Origin: Bradyrhizobiaceae bacterium PARB1
GTDB lineage: Bacteria > Pseudomonadota > Alphaproteobacteria > Rhizobiales > Xanthobacteraceae
Reading direction: 5' to 3'
Assembly (NCBI GenBank): GCA_002256345.1
Contig: NKIY01000005.1
Coordinates: forward strand, 252,485-316,484
DNA: 64,000 nucleotides
The notes below the pieces were generated by a model that searched no databases, was not told where the DNA came from, and saw only the letters and a program-made list of their open reading frames with translations. The position numbers and the translations under genes were made by a program. This document shows, one piece after another, positions 38,860 through 45,830 of this stretch. How positions within the stretch are numbered: the first letter of the stretch is position 1; each line of letters begins with the position of its first letter.

Positions 38860-39561
38860 ATGGCGCATCCCCTCAATCCTCTCTTCAACAACAGGCCGTA
38901 CGTCCGCGACTCCTCGTCGGAGCCTGTGCTGCGGCTGCGGATCCAGCCCGATGTGGACGACGGACCGCCGCCCGTTCCCGGCCGTCCCAAAGGCTGCAAG
39001 CGGCTGCACACCAATGCCACGGTGGCCGCGACGCGCCGACTGATCGAGGAGACGACGCTGAGCTACAAGCAGATCGCGGCGCGGACCGGCGCGACCGCCG
39101 GCACCGTCGGCCGCTGGGCCCGCGAATTCGGCTGGCAGCGCCATCCCTTCGCGCCCCGTGCCTGCGACACGGTGCCGACCGCCCGCGCCGGCCGCCGGCT
39201 GAAGCTGCGCATGCTGGGCGTGAAGCTGCAGGAGGTGGCCGAGCGCTGCGTCAACGAGCTGTGGGCCAGCCCCACGGTGGACTACGACCGGCTGATCAAG
39301 GCCATGGAGGCATTCAAGGTGGCGCGCCTGATGGCCATGGGCAGCCGCCGCCCGCGCCGCCATCCCGAGCCCAAGGCGCACAGCGCCCAGGACTGGCTCG
39401 ACCGCAACGCCGCCATCGCGAAGGCGCTGAAGGACCTGCGCTGGGGCGGCGTCAATATCGAGCACATCCCCGAGGAAGCGATGGCCCTGCTGGAAGAGGC
39501 GCACACGCCGCCGGAGGATCATCCGGCTTTGAGGCCGAGGGGGAAAAGAAGAAGAAAGTAG
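38860..39561 (+). CDS. Helix-turn-helix protein of unknown function
   Basis: This 233-residue protein is basic. An HTH of the resolvase/terminase-small-subunit-like kind is seen at about 67-93 (LSYKQIAARTGATAGTVGRWA). The rest is helical (ERCVNELWASPTVDYDRLIKAMEAFKVARLM) and ends in a KRRRK tail. It could be a DNA-binding regulator or a remnant of a mobile element. Base composition is like the host. It lies tail to tail with the low-GC methylase/nuclease insert, but there is no evidence that they act together. Confidence 0.7.
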   Translation: MAHPLNPLFNNRPYVRDSSSEPVLRLRIQPDVDDGPPPVPGRPKGCKRLHTNATVAATRRLIEETTLSYKQIAARTGATAGTVGRWAREFGWQRHPFAPRACDTVPTARAGRRLKLRMLGVKLQEVAERCVNELWASPTVDYDRLIKAMEAFKVARLMAMGSRRPRRHPEPKAHSAQDWLDRNAAIAKALKDLRWGGVNIEHIPEEAMALLEEAHTPPEDHPALRPRGKRRRK

Positions 39562-39638
39562 GGCTTAAAGATCGCCATAACACTTGCTTCGAAGACGAAG
39601 ACAACGAGCGAGAACCGGTTCAGCTAGTCAAGTAGCCT

Positions 39639-40298
39639 TTACGCCACACAGCTTCCCACGGGCAGAAAAGCGTGGTTCAGCTCGATGCTCGTAAAATTCG
39701 TCCGCGGATGCTGACTTAGCCAAAACGCCTGACCGTTAAGACTCAGCTGCTCTGGTGTTCTTTTACTCTTCTTCAGAAAGGCGTTTATCTGTTCGACAAT
39801 AACGTTTGGTGCGCCAGCCAACACATATCCTGTCATAAATCCTCGGCTATGAGCAGCACCATATTTTCTTGAACAGAAGCGATCCATCCCTTCCTTCACG
39901 TACTCGCGAATAAGATTAGCGTCTCCCGCTGCGACCCTCTTACATTCGATAATCGCGTGAGGATCGTGCTGCCCAAGCTTCAGGAATATCTCGATGAACA
40001 GTATCGGAATATCGGTTCTTCCGTCAGGAACCGGAAACTCCGTAGATCTAGATTCTGTTCCTGGCAAAACGACCATTGACCTTCGCCAAGGAAGTTTCCG
40101 CGCTTTAAGCGCCTCTCTCATCCCATCGCGCAGGCGTTCTGTAATTACAATCTCTTTTGCATCCGAAGCCAAATCGTGATGTTTTCTAGCTATTTCCCAT
40201 CCAAATTCGACTGTCTGTAGAATGGCGGCCGCAATATCCGGCGCAAGATCGATAAGTGCCTCTCCTATTACTGCGGGCTTCTCAAACGGGATGCTCAC
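39639..40298 (-). CDS. Putative PD-(D/E)XK nuclease partner of the upstream DNA methylase
   Basis: This 219-residue protein carries RTDIPILFIEIF and HAIIECKRV, with Asp96, Glu118 and Lys120 in the D...ExK pattern of PD-(D/E)XK nucleases. No family name is recognised with certainty. It starts at a GTG overlapping the methylase stop (GTGA), so the two are translationally coupled. Codon use is AT-richer than the neighbours, which suggests transfer. The likely role is DNA cleavage in a restriction or anti-phage module; a non-catalytic role is possible. Confidence 0.65.
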   Translation of the reverse strand: MSIPFEKPAVIGEALIDLAPDIAAAILQTVEFGWEIARKHHDLASDAKEIVITERLRDGMREALKARKLPWRRSMVVLPGTESRSTEFPVPDGRTDIPILFIEIFLKLGQHDPHAIIECKRVAAGDANLIREYVKEGMDRFCSRKYGAAHSRGFMTGYVLAGAPNVIVEQINAFLKKSKRTPEQLSLNGQAFWLSQHPRTNFTSIELNHAFLPVGSCVA

Positions 40299-43261
40299 CT
40301 CGAAGCTCCCGAGAAACTTTCTGCCACAATCGCGTCGGCATCTTCTAGCGCCGCGCTCCTCATCCAGAATCTTCGTGCCGCAGGTTTGATGAGAACAACC
40401 TCTGACCGAGAGTGAATCCGCAGCTCCCGCTCGCCGATTAATGAAGCCGCGAGGGGCACACGCAAACGATCACCGATAGCTTTGATTGTGCTACCGAGAC
40501 TTCCCTCAGGCTTTATAATGTCAACGCGAGATTTTCGAGCAGCATCCAAAAGGATGAAGCGGATAATGCGAAGGGGCGACTGCTGCGGCAGATCATAAAT
40601 TTCTGCCTTCATGCTGCGCTTATTGGAAACGCTGAACCACGGCTGGATACCAGCCAAAAAAGCGTCAGCATATGCGCGCAGATCACCGTCAACACTCGCC
40701 GGTTCTGCAGCTCTTTGACGACCTTCATCCCATTGCCATTCAGCCCGGAGAAAACCGTCTTGCACCACTAATCGATCAATCGCATCCAGATCGTAGATAT
40801 CGCAAACTAATCTATCTAGGTTAGACCAATCATCTGGGGTCACATCTTTTCGCTTTAGCTTTCGCTCTAAAGCGAGGAGCTCCTTTCCAGCCGGAGACGC
40901 AAGAGTCCTATCAAGGCGCGGAATAGGCAGAAGACCAACATCGTTGGTCAAAAGCCTTCTCTTCCACAGACCAAATTCAGATGCTGTCATCAAAAAAAAC
41001 CAAGTCGCAAACGAGGAACTAAGAATCATTGAGAGCAGACGGCCGCTCTCCTGATTTTTCACTCCCAACGCAGCGCCAAAGTACGCATCCGTATAGACAA
41101 GGTCGCGCGTAGACAAAGCTGTCATCGGCCGAGGACTTGCTTTTAGAAACTCCTTCACAAGCAGCAATGGCGCGCGATACGTTTCTCTGGATCGCGGCCA
41201 CTGAGCCTCGCCTTCTTCGAAGCTCTCAAGATTTGATGGCAGCTTAAAGTAATCAAGTGATTTGGTCGTCAGTATTTCAAGACCACGCAGATGGGACGCG
41301 GCCCGCGTCCGGCTTTCTGGCTTACCTAAGATCAGACCATCGCGCCAAACGGAGCCGATCGATTCCAACCATTTATTCAAGGACGAATACTCGGCTTTCA
41401 TTTCGTCGAGCAGAGCTATATCGCGAGATCGCCCGAATGCGACTGACTTAAGACGCTCTGGATCTTTCGCCCATTCATCAAGAGATAGTGTCGACACGTC
41501 GCTAGGGGATATCTCAAACGTTTGAGACCGCTCTCCTGCAGGAGACCAAGGAACGTTTACAACAGTTAGCTGCCCTTCACGCTGCTTTCTACAGTTAGCT
41601 AAAAGTATAACGGCTGGCATTTTTGCCGTTGGGAAAAGCCAACGAATAAGCGGCGCAAGATTTACGATTGTCGCAGGAGACAGCCGTTCAACGACGTTTC
41701 TAGCTGCCGCCGCTCCAGTCTTACTGCCGGAAAAGAAAGGCATAGCACTTAGCACAATACCATAGCGCGTCTTATCGTGCGCAAAGTCCATCGCGCGCAT
41801 CACGAAGTCGAGCCCTTCGCCGCGAGGCTGGAGGGGCACTGCTTTCGAAGCATGAGAATGTCGTTCGGCAGTTCCCCGCTTACCCTTAAAAGTCCACGGG
41901 GGATTACCCACGACCAAGTCGAATTGGCGCCTAGTGCCTTCGACTAGTAGGGCCGCCCCGGCAGGAGTTGTTTCTACGTCCCGAGCATTTCCAACGAACA
42001 AAGTCCGCCCTATCAGCTCTTGAAATTTGAGAGATTCTGGCGGCTGCGGCTCGGGATCGAGCTCAAGCGCCGCGAGATAAAGACTAAAAGCGGCAACGCG
42101 TACAGCAGCCTCGCTGATATCAACTCCGAATATCTGCTCGTACAACGTTGCTCTAATGACGGCTCGGGTCGGCTTTCCCTTACTTCGTATCAATACGAGC
42201 CGCCGAAACGACTCCACGAGAAAAATACCGGACCCGCACGTTAAGTCTAAGATAGTCTCTTTGCCACTTACGCCATCCAAAACTTCATCGAGCACAAGCG
42301 AGACAACGGGCAAACGTGTGTAATGCACACCAAGCTTCTTGGCGCTACCTTCTGAAGTGCCATCGGCGTCTTCATCAGACTTTGAATGAGCGAATTGCTC
42401 ATAAATCGAACTTATAAGCTCGACGGGAATAATATCAAACCGATACGGAAACAACGAATGTTGTCCCGTTTCAGGATCCACCGCCTCGAGAAAATCAGCC
42501 ACTCTCGCGAAATGTTTCTGGCGTAGTTGAGCCATCGGCATTGACGCAGGAAACATATCGCCATTGAAAGAATCGCGCAGCCACGAAAACAACGACTGCG
42601 CGGACGCCGAAACGCGCAATGCATCAGGCAGAGTTTCTTTACCGCAGTGTTGGACTAGCTTCTTAGTATCAACGATACCACGATCGACTAGGTACTGCGT
42701 AAAAATGGCACGCCCAATTAAACCTTGAGCGGCTCCCCGATCCACTCCCTCAGCGACCAAATCTCTTTCGAGAGCAGAAAGTTCGAGCAAGAGCTGCTGA
42801 TCGACTGTCGATTTACGATTGATAGTCTCGTTGTGCAGCCAAAATTGCCCGCTCTCCATAGCAAATCGGCCCGCCAGTTGATCGAGTTCAACGAGCTGAT
42901 TATCGATTGCTTGAAAGGTATGTAGGCGATGAAGATCGGCATCTCCCTCTGCTTGCGGACGGCCGAAACCGTTGTAAAGATCAATTCTATTTGGGCTCAC
43001 AACCCAAAGAAGCGGCGCAAAGCCCTCATTCCAAATTTCACGGCGCCATACACTTACCTCGTCTGCCGAAGGCGGTACTGATTTGTACTTGAAGTACACA
43101 GTTAGAGCAGACGGGCCCCGCCAAAGGGCATCTGGTGAAAAATATGAACCGCGGCGCCCGGCTCGCGCCTCTCGGGCCACTCGAACGCCGGGAGCGGGCC
43201 GCCCGTTGTTTAGGAAGCCCGTTGCCTCAAGAACTTTCCCGAGCGGGCCCGGTATTGCCAT
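40295..43261 (-). CDS. Large N6-adenine DNA methylase (Eco57I-like), restriction-modification type
   Basis: This is a 988-residue protein. Residues 1-110 form an uncharacterised N-terminal domain (VWRREIWNEGFAPLLWVVSP). The methylase core has GVHYT (motif X) at about 311, LDLTCGSGIFLVES (motif I) at about 338 and LVVGNPPW (motif IV) at about 449. The second half (about 600-988) resembles target-recognition and helical regions of type IIG enzymes, but no nuclease motif is obvious, matching the separate nuclease gene. It would protect host DNA by adenine methylation. GC is lower than the host from about codon 60 on. Confidence 0.85.
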   Translation of the reverse strand: MAIPGPLGKVLEATGFLNNGRPAPGVRVAREARAGRRGSYFSPDALWRGPSALTVYFKYKSVPPSADEVSVWRREIWNEGFAPLLWVVSPNRIDLYNGFGRPQAEGDADLHRLHTFQAIDNQLVELDQLAGRFAMESGQFWLHNETINRKSTVDQQLLLELSALERDLVAEGVDRGAAQGLIGRAIFTQYLVDRGIVDTKKLVQHCGKETLPDALRVSASAQSLFSWLRDSFNGDMFPASMPMAQLRQKHFARVADFLEAVDPETGQHSLFPYRFDIIPVELISSIYEQFAHSKSDEDADGTSEGSAKKLGVHYTRLPVVSLVLDEVLDGVSGKETILDLTCGSGIFLVESFRRLVLIRSKGKPTRAVIRATLYEQIFGVDISEAAVRVAAFSLYLAALELDPEPQPPESLKFQELIGRTLFVGNARDVETTPAGAALLVEGTRRQFDLVVGNPPWTFKGKRGTAERHSHASKAVPLQPRGEGLDFVMRAMDFAHDKTRYGIVLSAMPFFSGSKTGAAAARNVVERLSPATIVNLAPLIRWLFPTAKMPAVILLANCRKQREGQLTVVNVPWSPAGERSQTFEISPSDVSTLSLDEWAKDPERLKSVAFGRSRDIALLDEMKAEYSSLNKWLESIGSVWRDGLILGKPESRTRAASHLRGLEILTTKSLDYFKLPSNLESFEEGEAQWPRSRETYRAPLLLVKEFLKASPRPMTALSTRDLVYTDAYFGAALGVKNQESGRLLSMILSSSFATWFFLMTASEFGLWKRRLLTNDVGLLPIPRLDRTLASPAGKELLALERKLKRKDVTPDDWSNLDRLVCDIYDLDAIDRLVVQDGFLRAEWQWDEGRQRAAEPASVDGDLRAYADAFLAGIQPWFSVSNKRSMKAEIYDLPQQSPLRIIRFILLDAARKSRVDIIKPEGSLGSTIKAIGDRLRVPLAASLIGERELRIHSRSEVVLIKPAARRFWMRSAALEDADAIVAESFSGASR

Positions 43262-43387
43262 TTTGTCTTTCGCATAAGCCTGGCCCGAGGGGGCCGATGA
43301 GCGGTCTTAGTTTCACGAAGCGAGTCCCAATATAGAACATATCGTGAACAAAACAATTATCTCCGCGAACAACAGTGCCGCAATTAT

Positions 43388-43410
43388 GGTTAACATCTTA
43401 TTAACCATAT
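43388..43410. promoter_or_regulatory. Inverted repeat in the AT-rich promoter region of the methylase/nuclease operon
   Basis: atggttaa-catctta-ttaaccat is a perfect 8+7+8 dyad about 130 bp upstream of the methylase start. It is in the most AT-rich part of the window. It may be an operator for a controller protein or part of the promoter. No controller gene is seen beside it. Confidence 0.5.
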
Positions 43411-43469
43411 GATTTATAAGCATTAATTGAGACCAAGACTTCAGCGACAACGCGGCGAAATAAAAGGGC

Positions 43470-44288
43470 TCAGCTTCCAAACAACTTGTTCAACTCCCCG
43501 CCCTTCGCCCCATTCGCGAAGCTCGTGAATGTCCCCTGCCCGGCGATCTCCTGCGAGGCATGCATGAAGCCGGCCCAGGCCATGCGGGCCAGTGCGCCGC
43601 CGACGCTGATGCGGCGGACGCCGAGCGAGGCCAGATGCTGGACGGTCATGGTCGGCTGCACGGTGAGGACATTGAGCGGCTTGCCGCCCAGCGCCTTCAC
43701 CAGCGTGGTGATCTCCGCGTCCGAGGCAACGCCGGGCGCATAGAGGCAATCGGCGCCGGCCTCGGCAAAGGCGACCAGCCGCGCGGTGGTCTTCTTCAGG
43801 TCGCGCTCGCCATGCAGAAAGCCTTCGCAGCGCGCCACCAGCATGACGGCGGGATCGACGCCGTCGATGGCGGCGCGGGCGGCCTTGATGCGCTCCACCG
43901 CGAGCGTGTCGTCATAAAGCGGCTGGTCGGCGCGGCCGGTGGAATTCTCGATGGACAGGCCGGAGATGCCGCTCTTCGCCGCGCGGGCGACATGGGCGGC
44001 GACGCCTGCGGGGTCATCGGCAAAGCCGTTCTCGAAATCGGCATTCACGGGCAGATCGGTGGCGGCGGAGAGCAGCGCGAGATGCTCGATGACGTCGTCG
44101 GCCGTGACCTTGTTGTCGGGGCGGCCGGTGGACCAGGCATAGCCGGCGGAGGTCGAGGCCAGCGCCTTGAAGCCGAGATGGGCGAGATAACGCGCGGAGC
44201 CGACATCCCAGGGATTGGGGAGGACGAAACAGCCGGACGCGTGGAGCTTGCGGAAATTGGCGTGCTTCTCGGCGGGGGAAAGGGGCAT
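43470..44288 (-). CDS. Isocitrate lyase / PEP mutase superfamily protein
   Basis: This 272-residue TIM-barrel enzyme has LPVNADFENGFADDP, the acidic metal-binding segment, and ISGLSIENSTG. The Cys of the isocitrate-lyase KKCGH motif is absent, so it is not an isocitrate lyase. Possible reactions are oxaloacetate decarboxylation, 2-methylisocitrate-like cleavage or carboxyphosphonoenolpyruvate chemistry. It is probably soluble. No neighbouring gene points to the substrate. It marks the return to host-like GC after the methylase insert. Confidence 0.83.
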   Translation of the reverse strand: MPLSPAEKHANFRKLHASGCFVLPNPWDVGSARYLAHLGFKALASTSAGYAWSTGRPDNKVTADDVIEHLALLSAATDLPVNADFENGFADDPAGVAAHVARAAKSGISGLSIENSTGRADQPLYDDTLAVERIKAARAAIDGVDPAVMLVARCEGFLHGERDLKKTTARLVAFAEAGADCLYAPGVASDAEITTLVKALGGKPLNVLTVQPTMTVQHLASLGVRRISVGGALARMAWAGFMHASQEIAGQGTFTSFANGAKGGELNKLFGS

Positions 44289-44615: not shown

Positions 44616-45830
44616 TTACCCCCGTCCGGGCATTCCGCTGTCCAGCAGAACCGCCAGACGATCCAGCTCCGGCGCGATATCCCGCGTCACGTCATCGGCG
44701 CGGATCGCCAGCACGCGGTAGCCGCGCTCCTCCAGCCAGGCTTTTCGCGACGCGCGATCGGCCACGATCACCTCGGTCTCGCCGGGATTGACCAACTCCA
44801 CCGCGATGCGCTCGGGGAAACTGACGAAATCCGGGATGTGGCGGCCCACCGGGGTCTGGCGCTTGAACTGGCCGGCGAAGCGGCGGTCGGCGCGCAGATG
44901 CTCCCACAGGATCCGCTCGGCATCGGTGGGGTTGCGGCGGAGCATGCGGGCGAGGCCGCGGACGGTGCCGCTCTCATGCTCCTTCGCCTTGCCGCCGTGT
45001 TCGGCCAGCAGCGCGCGCAGGCGCGTGGCCTGTTCGCCATCGAGCACGCCGCCCTTGGCCGGGCCCTTGCGGCCCTCGGCGATGGCCATCACCACGCCGT
45101 GCAGCGTGTGCATGTCCTGCTTGGACGGCTCCATGCGGGTGAAGATGTTGCGCAGGTTCACCAGCATGGTGTCGCGTTTTTCCGGCGGGCGGAGGAATTC
45201 GACCTTGTCGAGCTCGGCGACCAGATTGTCGAAGAAGGCCGTCATCTGGTGCTGCGAGGCGCGCTCGGAGCGCTCGGGCATGGCGTATGGCAGCGCGTTG
45301 GAGGTCGCCTGCTTGAACCATTCATAGCCGCAGAGCAGCACCGCCTGGGCGAGGTTCAGCGAGGAAAAGCCGGGATTGACCGGGAAGGTCATGATCCGGT
45401 TGGCCAGCGCCACCTCCTCGTTCTGCAGGCCGTAGCGCTCGCGGCCGAACAGGATGCCGGCCGTGGCACCCGTCTTGATATGGGCGATGGTCTCGGCGGC
45501 GGCGGCCTCGGGGGCGACCACCGGCTTGGCCTGGTCATGGGCGCGGGCGGTGGTGGCGTAAAGGAGGGTGCAGTCGGCGACGGCCTCCTCGACCGTGTCG
45601 AAGATCTCGACGGCGTTCAGCACATGGTCGGCGCCGGAGGCGGCGCGCTGGGCATGGACATTGGGCCAGCCGTCGCGCGGCTTGACGAGGCGCAGGCGGG
45701 TCAGGCCGAAATTGCCCATGGCGCGCGCGGCGGTGCCGATATTCTCGCCGAGCTGCGGCTCGACCAGAATGACAACGGGGCCTGTCAGATCGCTCATGGT
45801 CTTGCTGCGATCGGTGCCGGAGCCGGTCAT
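44616..45830 (-). CDS. TrmJ-type RNA methyltransferase fused to a C-terminal DUF559 nuclease-like domain
   Basis: This 404-residue protein has residues 16-260 forming a SPOUT methyltransferase: VVILVEPQLGENIGTAARAM, ILFGRERYGLQNEEV and the knot segment FSSLNLAQAVLLCGYEW. TrmJ 2'-O-methylates position 32 of tRNA. Residues about 288-398 match DUF559, a Vsr-like PD-(D/E)XK fold: ARMLRRNPTDAERILWEHLR and IPDFVSFPERIAVELVNPG. The usual ELDG acidic residue is replaced (ELVN), so nuclease activity is doubtful. An ATG at 45797 (MSDLTGP) is an alternative start. Competing hairpins precede the gene. Confidence 0.87.
   Translation of the reverse strand: MTGSGTDRSKTMSDLTGPVVILVEPQLGENIGTAARAMGNFGLTRLRLVKPRDGWPNVHAQRAASGADHVLNAVEIFDTVEEAVADCTLLYATTARAHDQAKPVVAPEAAAAETIAHIKTGATAGILFGRERYGLQNEEVALANRIMTFPVNPGFSSLNLAQAVLLCGYEWFKQATSNALPYAMPERSERASQHQMTAFFDNLVAELDKVEFLRPPEKRDTMLVNLRNIFTRMEPSKQDMHTLHGVVMAIAEGRKGPAKGGVLDGEQATRLRALLAEHGGKAKEHESGTVRGLARMLRRNPTDAERILWEHLRADRRFAGQFKRQTPVGRHIPDFVSFPERIAVELVNPGETEVIVADRASRKAWLEERGYRVLAIRADDVTRDIAPELDRLAVLLDSGMPGRG

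What the first reader, a model, noticed from the sequence alone, without database searches (positions are those of the whole stretch)
39639..43410. Low-GC two-gene DNA methylase plus small PD-(D/E)XK nuclease module, possibly an undescribed restriction or anti-phage system
Seen: a 988-residue adenine methylase (motifs LDLTCGSGIF and NPPW) and a 219-residue protein with a D...ExK pattern (RTDIPILF, IIECKRV) overlap by GTGA. The block is AT-richer than the rest of the window and has its own AT-rich upstream region. Known: type IIG enzymes keep nuclease and methylase in one chain, and other systems use a separate nuclease. Inferred: here cleavage may have been split off to a small separate subunit. 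I do not recognise this exact pair as a named system.
Basis: partly seen in the sequence, partly recalled or inferred. Interest (0 to 1): 0.75.

Follow-up and report, generated by a model that had tools for sequence, protein, structure and literature searches.

The report
Two-gene split methylase-nuclease restriction system
Two neighbouring bacterial genes encode a large DNA-marking enzyme whose built-in cutting domain has lost its catalytic residues, and a small separate DNA-cutting enzyme that almost always accompanies it; the pair recurs in many bacterial and some archaeal phyla and looks like an uncharacterised type of restriction-modification system that databases file as something simpler.

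Summary
The 988-aa protein is a gamma-class adenine methylase with an MmeI-like layout. The 219-aa protein is a PD-(D/E)XK nuclease: AlphaFold2 pLDDT 89, with D96, E118, K120 and H209 invariant in 78 relatives. The pair is a conserved unit. Of 83 close methylase loci, 78 have the small gene directly downstream; four others end at contig edges. Conversely, all 8 nuclease loci found in 398 Pseudomonadota genomes have the methylase directly upstream. Pfam and PADLOC have no model for the nuclease; PADLOC files the methylase as fused "Type IIG". Its N-terminal domain is homologous to the nuclease domain of fused Type IIG enzymes (hhalign score 49.7; shuffled maximum 19.5) but lacks the ExK residues, so it looks like a retained dead relic. 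The separate nuclease is not recognisably that domain split off; it appears to be another PD-(D/E)XK lineage working in trans. No translocase accompanies the pair. In congeneric genomes the same site carries other defence cargo. Best reading: an ATP-independent, Type IIG-like restriction-modification system with its nuclease in trans, a new variant of a known kind. Methylation, cleavage and phage defence are untested.

The parts
40295..43261 (-). M gene: 988-aa gamma-class N6-adenine DNA methyltransferase with target-recognition region (P0001)
   Evidence: Pfam N6_Mtase/Eco57I/MmeI_Mtase; AF2 pLDDT 89.6; residues 151-839 align with MmeI 159-894 at Z 21.3 and with BrxX at Z 23.8
42812..43261 (-). 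M residues 1-150: degenerate PD-(D/E)XK (Type IIG nuclease-like) domain without catalytic ExK
   Evidence: hhalign to fused Type IIG N-termini 94% probability, score 49.7 against at most 19.5 in 60 shuffles; no conserved E-x-K
42227..42247 (-). Motif I (SAM binding) DLTCGSG, residues 339-345
   Evidence: D339, G343, G345 invariant in 82 homologues
41894..41905 (-). Catalytic motif IV NPPW, residues 453-456
   Evidence: N453 and P455 invariant, W456 at least 90%
40742..41464 (-). Target-recognition region, about residues 600-840
   Evidence: Position by structural alignment to MmeI; sharp drop of identity here between otherwise close relatives
40298..40741 (-). Extra C-terminal domain, residues 841-988, function unknown (possible docking site)
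   Evidence: Confident fold, mostly outside the alignments to MmeI and BrxX; W966 at least 90% conserved
39639..40298 (-). R gene: 219-aa PD-(D/E)XK nuclease (P0002), GTG start overlapping the M stop codon by 4 nt
   Evidence: AF2 pLDDT 89; VIA-align rows dominated by PD-(D/E)XK nucleases; invariant D, E, K, H
40011..40013 (-). R catalytic D96
   Evidence: 78/78 homologues
39939..39947 (-). R catalytic E118-C119-K120
   Evidence: E and K 78/78 homologues
39672..39674 (-). R invariant H209 on the last strand, role unknown
   Evidence: 78/78 homologues
38860..39561 (+). Left flank of the hotspot: conserved gene (233 aa, weak HTH matches)
   Evidence: Nucleotide match in congeneric genomes ends near 39543
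43470..44288 (-). Right flank of the hotspot: PEP mutase family gene
   Evidence: Pfam PEP_mutase E=1e-71; match resumes near 43477 in congeners

Best explanation
The pair is an ATP-independent restriction-modification system of Type IIG-like (MmeI-like) build whose nuclease works in trans. M recognises an unknown, probably asymmetric site through its target-recognition region and methylates an adenine there (inferred from the NPPW class and the MmeI-like layout). R supplies the only intact PD-(D/E)XK cutting site and is expected to be brought to DNA by M, cutting near the site when it is unmethylated, probably when two M-R complexes meet (inferred). M keeps a catalytically dead copy of the Type IIG nuclease domain, which may be the docking or signalling surface for R (inferred). 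Shown here: the two predicted folds, residue conservation, tight gene pairing, loss of the catalytic ExK in the N-terminal domain, absence of a translocase or other constant third gene, and the defence-hotspot location. Not shown: methylation, cleavage, a complex of the two proteins, or phage defence.
For: Pairing in both directions: 78 of 83 MTase loci have R directly downstream on the same strand, 75 of 78 with overlap or a gap of at most 20 nt, the misses being four contig ends and one orphan; 8 of 8 R loci found in 398 Pseudomonadota genomes have M directly upstream. R fold and invariant E..D..ExK. M catalytic motifs invariant and MmeI/DrdV/BrxX-like fold. N-terminal domain homologous to the Type IIG nuclease domain but without ExK. 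R does not change like a specificity subunit when the recognition region does: Zunongwangia/Cloacibacterium copies (L089/L105) are 18-35% identical in the recognition region, about 45-87% elsewhere in M, and 70% in R. The same genomic gap holds a Type I R-M system, PD-Lambda-4, retron type VI and other defence-type cargo in congeners.
Against: No functional data. R is the size of an ordinary autonomous Type II enzyme, and R identity tracks the recognition region slightly more than other M domains do (partial r about 0.3 for R, 0.1-0.2 for the N-terminal domain, 0 for the C-terminal domain; pairs not independent), so R may carry some specificity. At most 4 of 82 relatives show a [DE]xK near the expected place in the N-terminal domain, so that domain may not be dead everywhere. 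Foldseek alone found no significant PDB match for R; the fold call rests on VIA-align rows at Z up to 7.5 plus the motif.
Confidence: 0.72

Rival explanations
1. Orthodox Type II system: R is an autonomous site-specific restriction enzyme with its own recognition, and M is merely an unusually large cognate methylase.
For: R is about 220 aa and resembles Type IIP enzymes best (OkrAI Z 7.5, BstYI Z 6.9); R covaries weakly with the recognition region.
Against: R stays about 70% identical, like the rest of M, between copies whose recognition regions are only 18-35% identical (L089/L105), and 90% identical between L051 and L052, whose recognition regions differ while most of the rest of M is 92-100% identical. 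A conserved dead nuclease domain in M is unexplained.
Confidence: 0.17
2. M is a fused Type IIG enzyme that does its own cutting, as databases label it; R is an accessory protein.
For: PADLOC scores M as REase_MTase_IIG (E=2.7e-53; 1.4e-129 for L106); the N-terminal domain is homologous to the Type IIG nuclease domain.
Against: The window protein reads LTVYFKYKSV where fused Type IIG relatives read FFVEAKKPSV; no E-x-K column is conserved in 82 members, whereas R keeps D, E and K of the active-site pattern in 78 of 78.
Confidence: 0.05
3. BREX-like or signalling use: the methylase marks self, and the partner acts through abortive infection or another non-cleaving or indiscriminate route rather than site-linked restriction.
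For: The core of M resembles BrxX/PglX structurally (Z 23.8).
Against: No BREX genes and no constant third gene in 101 loci; M scores 32.7 bits against a PglX cut-off of 400; R has a restriction-endonuclease-like fold.
Confidence: 0.06

Closest known systems
Type IIG / IIL restriction enzymes (MmeI, DrdV, BpuSI)
   Same: Helical connector, gamma-class N6 methylase and recognition region in the same order; homologous N-terminal domain; PADLOC files M here
   Different: The N-terminal nuclease site is lost; a separate small nuclease gene almost always lies next to it
Type IIG-like systems with separate endonuclease: AchA6III and OspHL35III (Blow et al. 2016, PMC4752239)
   Same: MmeI-like methylase/recognition protein lacking the nuclease motif, with the endonuclease on another polypeptide
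   Different: Those use a PLD nuclease fused to a translocase, or GIY-YIG plus a translocase; here the partner is a lone PD-(D/E)XK protein of about 220 aa with no translocase
Proposed split Type IIG pair HVO_A0006 / HVO_A0237 (PMC4389544)
   Same: Idea of a Type IIG nuclease part acting in trans
   Different: There the free part is the Type IIG N-terminal domain itself, a fragment rare among Halobacteria with the two genes at separate loci; here it is a different PD-(D/E)XK lineage in a widespread operon
BREX PglX/BrxX
   Same: Methylase and recognition fold
   Different: BrxX aligns from its first residue with residue 152 here, so it lacks this N-terminal domain; no BREX partner genes here

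Membership tests
Type IIG (fused restriction-modification enzyme) | Gamma-class methylase plus recognition region in one chain | tested here: met
Type IIG (fused restriction-modification enzyme) | Active nuclease domain in the same chain | tested here: not met
   Homologous domain present but the window sequence LTVYFKYKSV has no ExK and the column is not conserved in the family
Type II restriction-modification in general | Adjacent methylase and nuclease genes inherited together | tested here: met
Type II restriction-modification in general | Methylase and nuclease act on the same DNA site | not testable with these tools
   needs methylome and cleavage assays
Type IIG-like with separate endonuclease (AchA6III, OspHL35III) | Methylase/recognition protein without nuclease motif plus a separate nuclease | tested here: met
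   definition
Type IIG-like with separate endonuclease (AchA6III, OspHL35III) | PLD or GIY-YIG nuclease and a translocase | tested here: not met
   Nuclease fold and motif are PD-(D/E)XK; no constant third gene, only optional small HTH genes
BREX | PglZ, BrxC and other BREX genes with PglX | tested here: not met
   32.7 bits against cut-off 400; no recurrent partner genes of that kind
Type I restriction-modification | HsdR motor and HsdS subunit | tested here: not met
   Neither in the window module nor recurrent near homologues
[quoted passage not shown]
   Secondary structure H49-66, E75-77, E97-101, E115-123, H127-142, E152-161; invariant residues; VIA-align

The most novel reading that the evidence does not exclude
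A widespread, unnamed class of restriction-modification system in which the built-in Type IIG nuclease domain died but was kept as a docking or sensing module, and a PD-(D/E)XK protein of another lineage took over cleavage in trans under control of the methylase.
Probability: 0.45. Interest if true: 0.7.

Novelty: new variant of a known kind. Interest (0 to 1): 0.57.

Why it matters
Automatic annotation counts these methylases as self-sufficient Type IIG enzymes and leaves the partner a hypothetical protein, so a widespread restriction barrier is probably mis-described in many genomes and plasmids. A nuclease in trans is a convenient handle: the marking and cutting halves can be expressed, mutated and swapped separately, which would make the question of how Type IIG enzymes gate cleavage directly testable.

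Tried and rejected
The search for related loci with the small protein alone found nothing in genome contigs; the methylase alignment was needed. Hits L040 and L041 for the small protein were noise, out-of-frame ORFs inside other genes. Foldseek with the R model gave no significant match (best E 0.14); only the VIA-align second look showed the PD-(D/E)XK pattern. The idea that R is the split-off Type IIG domain was tested and not supported at profile level (2.5% probability, score 21 against a shuffled maximum of 17). Weak methylase hits in viral contigs (L134-L150) lack the partner, and those whose N-termini were inspected mostly carry an ExK there, so they served as the fused comparison set. 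No phage record in the INPHARED collection encodes a detectable relative of M. No sigma-70 promoter or terminator consensus near the start. The supplementary tables of PMC4752239, which may already list members, could not be read.

Full report
OBSERVATION. The two ORFs, their overlap and the motifs are as described. The block has 50-53% GC against 58-68% around it. The 988-aa protein matches Pfam N6_Mtase, Eco57I and MmeI_Mtase. The 219-aa protein matches no Pfam or PADLOC model, and across 78 homologues Pfam gives only weak PDDEXK_9 matches to four of them; PADLOC, NCBIfam and PHROGs give nothing usable.

THE PAIR IS A UNIT. Searching with the two proteins found the pair side by side in the same genome (a second copy on contig 12), in other genomes of the class, and on rhizobial and other plasmids. 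An alignment of nine methylases then brought in 80 loci from species-representative genomes and 23 from viral contigs. Of the 83 closest, 78 have the small gene immediately downstream on the same strand, 75 of them overlapping or within 20 nt; four of the remaining five end at contig edges and one (Symploca, L058) is a real orphan. In the other direction, a profile of the small protein found 8 loci in 7 of 398 Pseudomonadota genomes, and all 8 have the methylase directly upstream. Hosts include Pseudomonadota, Cyanobacteriota, Bacteroidota, Bacillota, Actinomycetota, Planctomycetota, Acidobacteriota, Chloroflexota, Gemmatimonadota and two archaea. In a tree of the helical plus catalytic region the split proteins fall on one side of a 100/100 branch from 13 viral-contig comparison proteins labelled fused; the sample was chosen by similarity, so this shows clustering, not origin. 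No fused methylase-nuclease ORF was seen.

THE SMALL PROTEIN. AlphaFold2 gives pLDDT 89 with the order helix 49-66, strands 75-77, 97-101 and 115-123, helix 127-142, strand 152-161. D96, E118, K120 and H209 are invariant, and E49 is nearly so. Foldseek is not significant, but in the VIA-align second look most of the top 29 rows are PD-(D/E)XK nucleases: OkrAI Z 7.5 (149 residues, 4.3 A), BstYI 6.9, McrC 6.6, NgoMIV 6.3, NucC, MunI, BglII and others. Z under 8 is not proof by itself; together with the motif it makes the assignment likely.

THE LARGE PROTEIN. AlphaFold2 gives pLDDT 89.6. Residues about 151-840 align with MmeI (Z 21.3), BrxX (23.8) and LlaGI (24.3), and 276-829 with CamA (27.2). 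Two further domains flank this core: residues 1-150 and about 841-988. The first is homologous to the N-terminal nuclease domain of fused Type IIG proteins (hhalign 94%, score 49.7; 60 column shuffles reach at most 19.5). Fused proteins read PDY...FFVEAKK; the window protein reads PDALWRGPSALTVYFKYKSV, and no E-x-K column is conserved in the family. A loose scan found [DEQ]xK somewhere in the region in 23 of 82 members, but by my reading at most four lie near the expected place (L067, L068, L108, L125), so the domain may be active in a few relatives. The small nuclease is not detectably close to either domain set, so the separate nuclease is better read as a different PD-(D/E)XK lineage than as the split-off domain. 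This inference is limited by the weak sensitivity of profile comparison in a very divergent superfamily.

WHO CARRIES SPECIFICITY? Between L051 and L052 most of the protein outside the recognition region is 92-100% identical, the recognition region 67-77%, and R 90%. Between L089 and L105 the recognition region is 18-35% identical, the rest about 45-87%, and R 70%. R therefore does not change as a specificity determinant would, although it covaries slightly with the recognition region. This favours M as the sequence reader. That the specificity differs between these pairs is inferred, not measured.

SURROUNDINGS. In nine congeneric genomes the two flanking genes are conserved but the gap of 3-7 kb between them holds different cargo. 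Type I hsdM/S/R is found in G303, N4/N6 methylase plus GHKL ATPase plus helicase in G290, methylase plus a DndB/DpdB-like protein in G302, PD-Lambda-4 A in G291, HTH plus reverse transcriptase of retron type VI in G292, a weak LmuB-like SMC protein in G305 and an HNH effector in G304. Cargo in G289 and G295 was not identified. The window module thus occupies a defence hotspot. Across 101 relatives no third gene is constant; 20 have an upstream MerR-like gene and 9 an XRE-like gene. The window copy has neither, as far as the search shows.

PRIOR KNOWLEDGE. Blow et al. 2016 (PMC4752239) described Type IIG-like systems whose endonuclease is on a separate peptide, AchA6III (PLD nuclease/translocase) and OspHL35III (translocase and GIY-YIG). 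They announced further work on classification in REBASE, and their supplementary tables were not readable here. Ouellette et al. 2015 (PMC4389544) speculated on a split Type IIG enzyme in Haloferax. Full-text searches found no description of the present pair, but only open-licence papers are held. PADLOC models PDLC03603 and PDLC03623 match the family over most of its length and call it a Type IIG REase-MTase. The verdict is a new variant of a known kind, with restriction function inferred.

Noticed in passing
window 39562-43469 and loci L169-L177: A chromosomal defence hotspot: between the same two genes nine congeneric genomes carry different cargo, including Type I R-M, PD-Lambda-4, retron type VI, methylase/GHKL/helicase and HNH effector genes.
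   Followed up: partly
window 44616-45830 (-): SpoU-type RNA methylase fused at its C-terminus to a DUF559 domain (Pfam E=1.7e-24 and 9.7e-19), an unusual-looking combination.
   Followed up: partly
L032 9818-13547 (same genome, contig 12): A second, diverged copy of the same two-gene system (about 34% identity) with a MerR-like gene upstream, so one genome may run two specificities.
   Followed up: partly
L046 4470-5624: On a Bradyrhizobium plasmid only an N-terminal methylase fragment (up to 64% identical to the window protein) remains, with no nuclease found: a decayed copy.
   Followed up: no
upstream of M in 20 of 101 loci, e.g. L051, L049, L048: A MerR-like HTH gene of about 155 aa, often overlapping the methylase start by ATGA, possibly a controller; XRE-like genes in 9 other loci. 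Absent in the window.
   Followed up: partly
P0002 residue 209 (window 39672-39674): An invariant histidine on the last strand of the nuclease, in addition to D, E and K; role unknown.
   Followed up: no
L068 N-terminal domain: One relative reads NPD...CEFK in the N-terminal domain, possibly a still active Type IIG-like nuclease site beside the separate nuclease.
   Followed up: no
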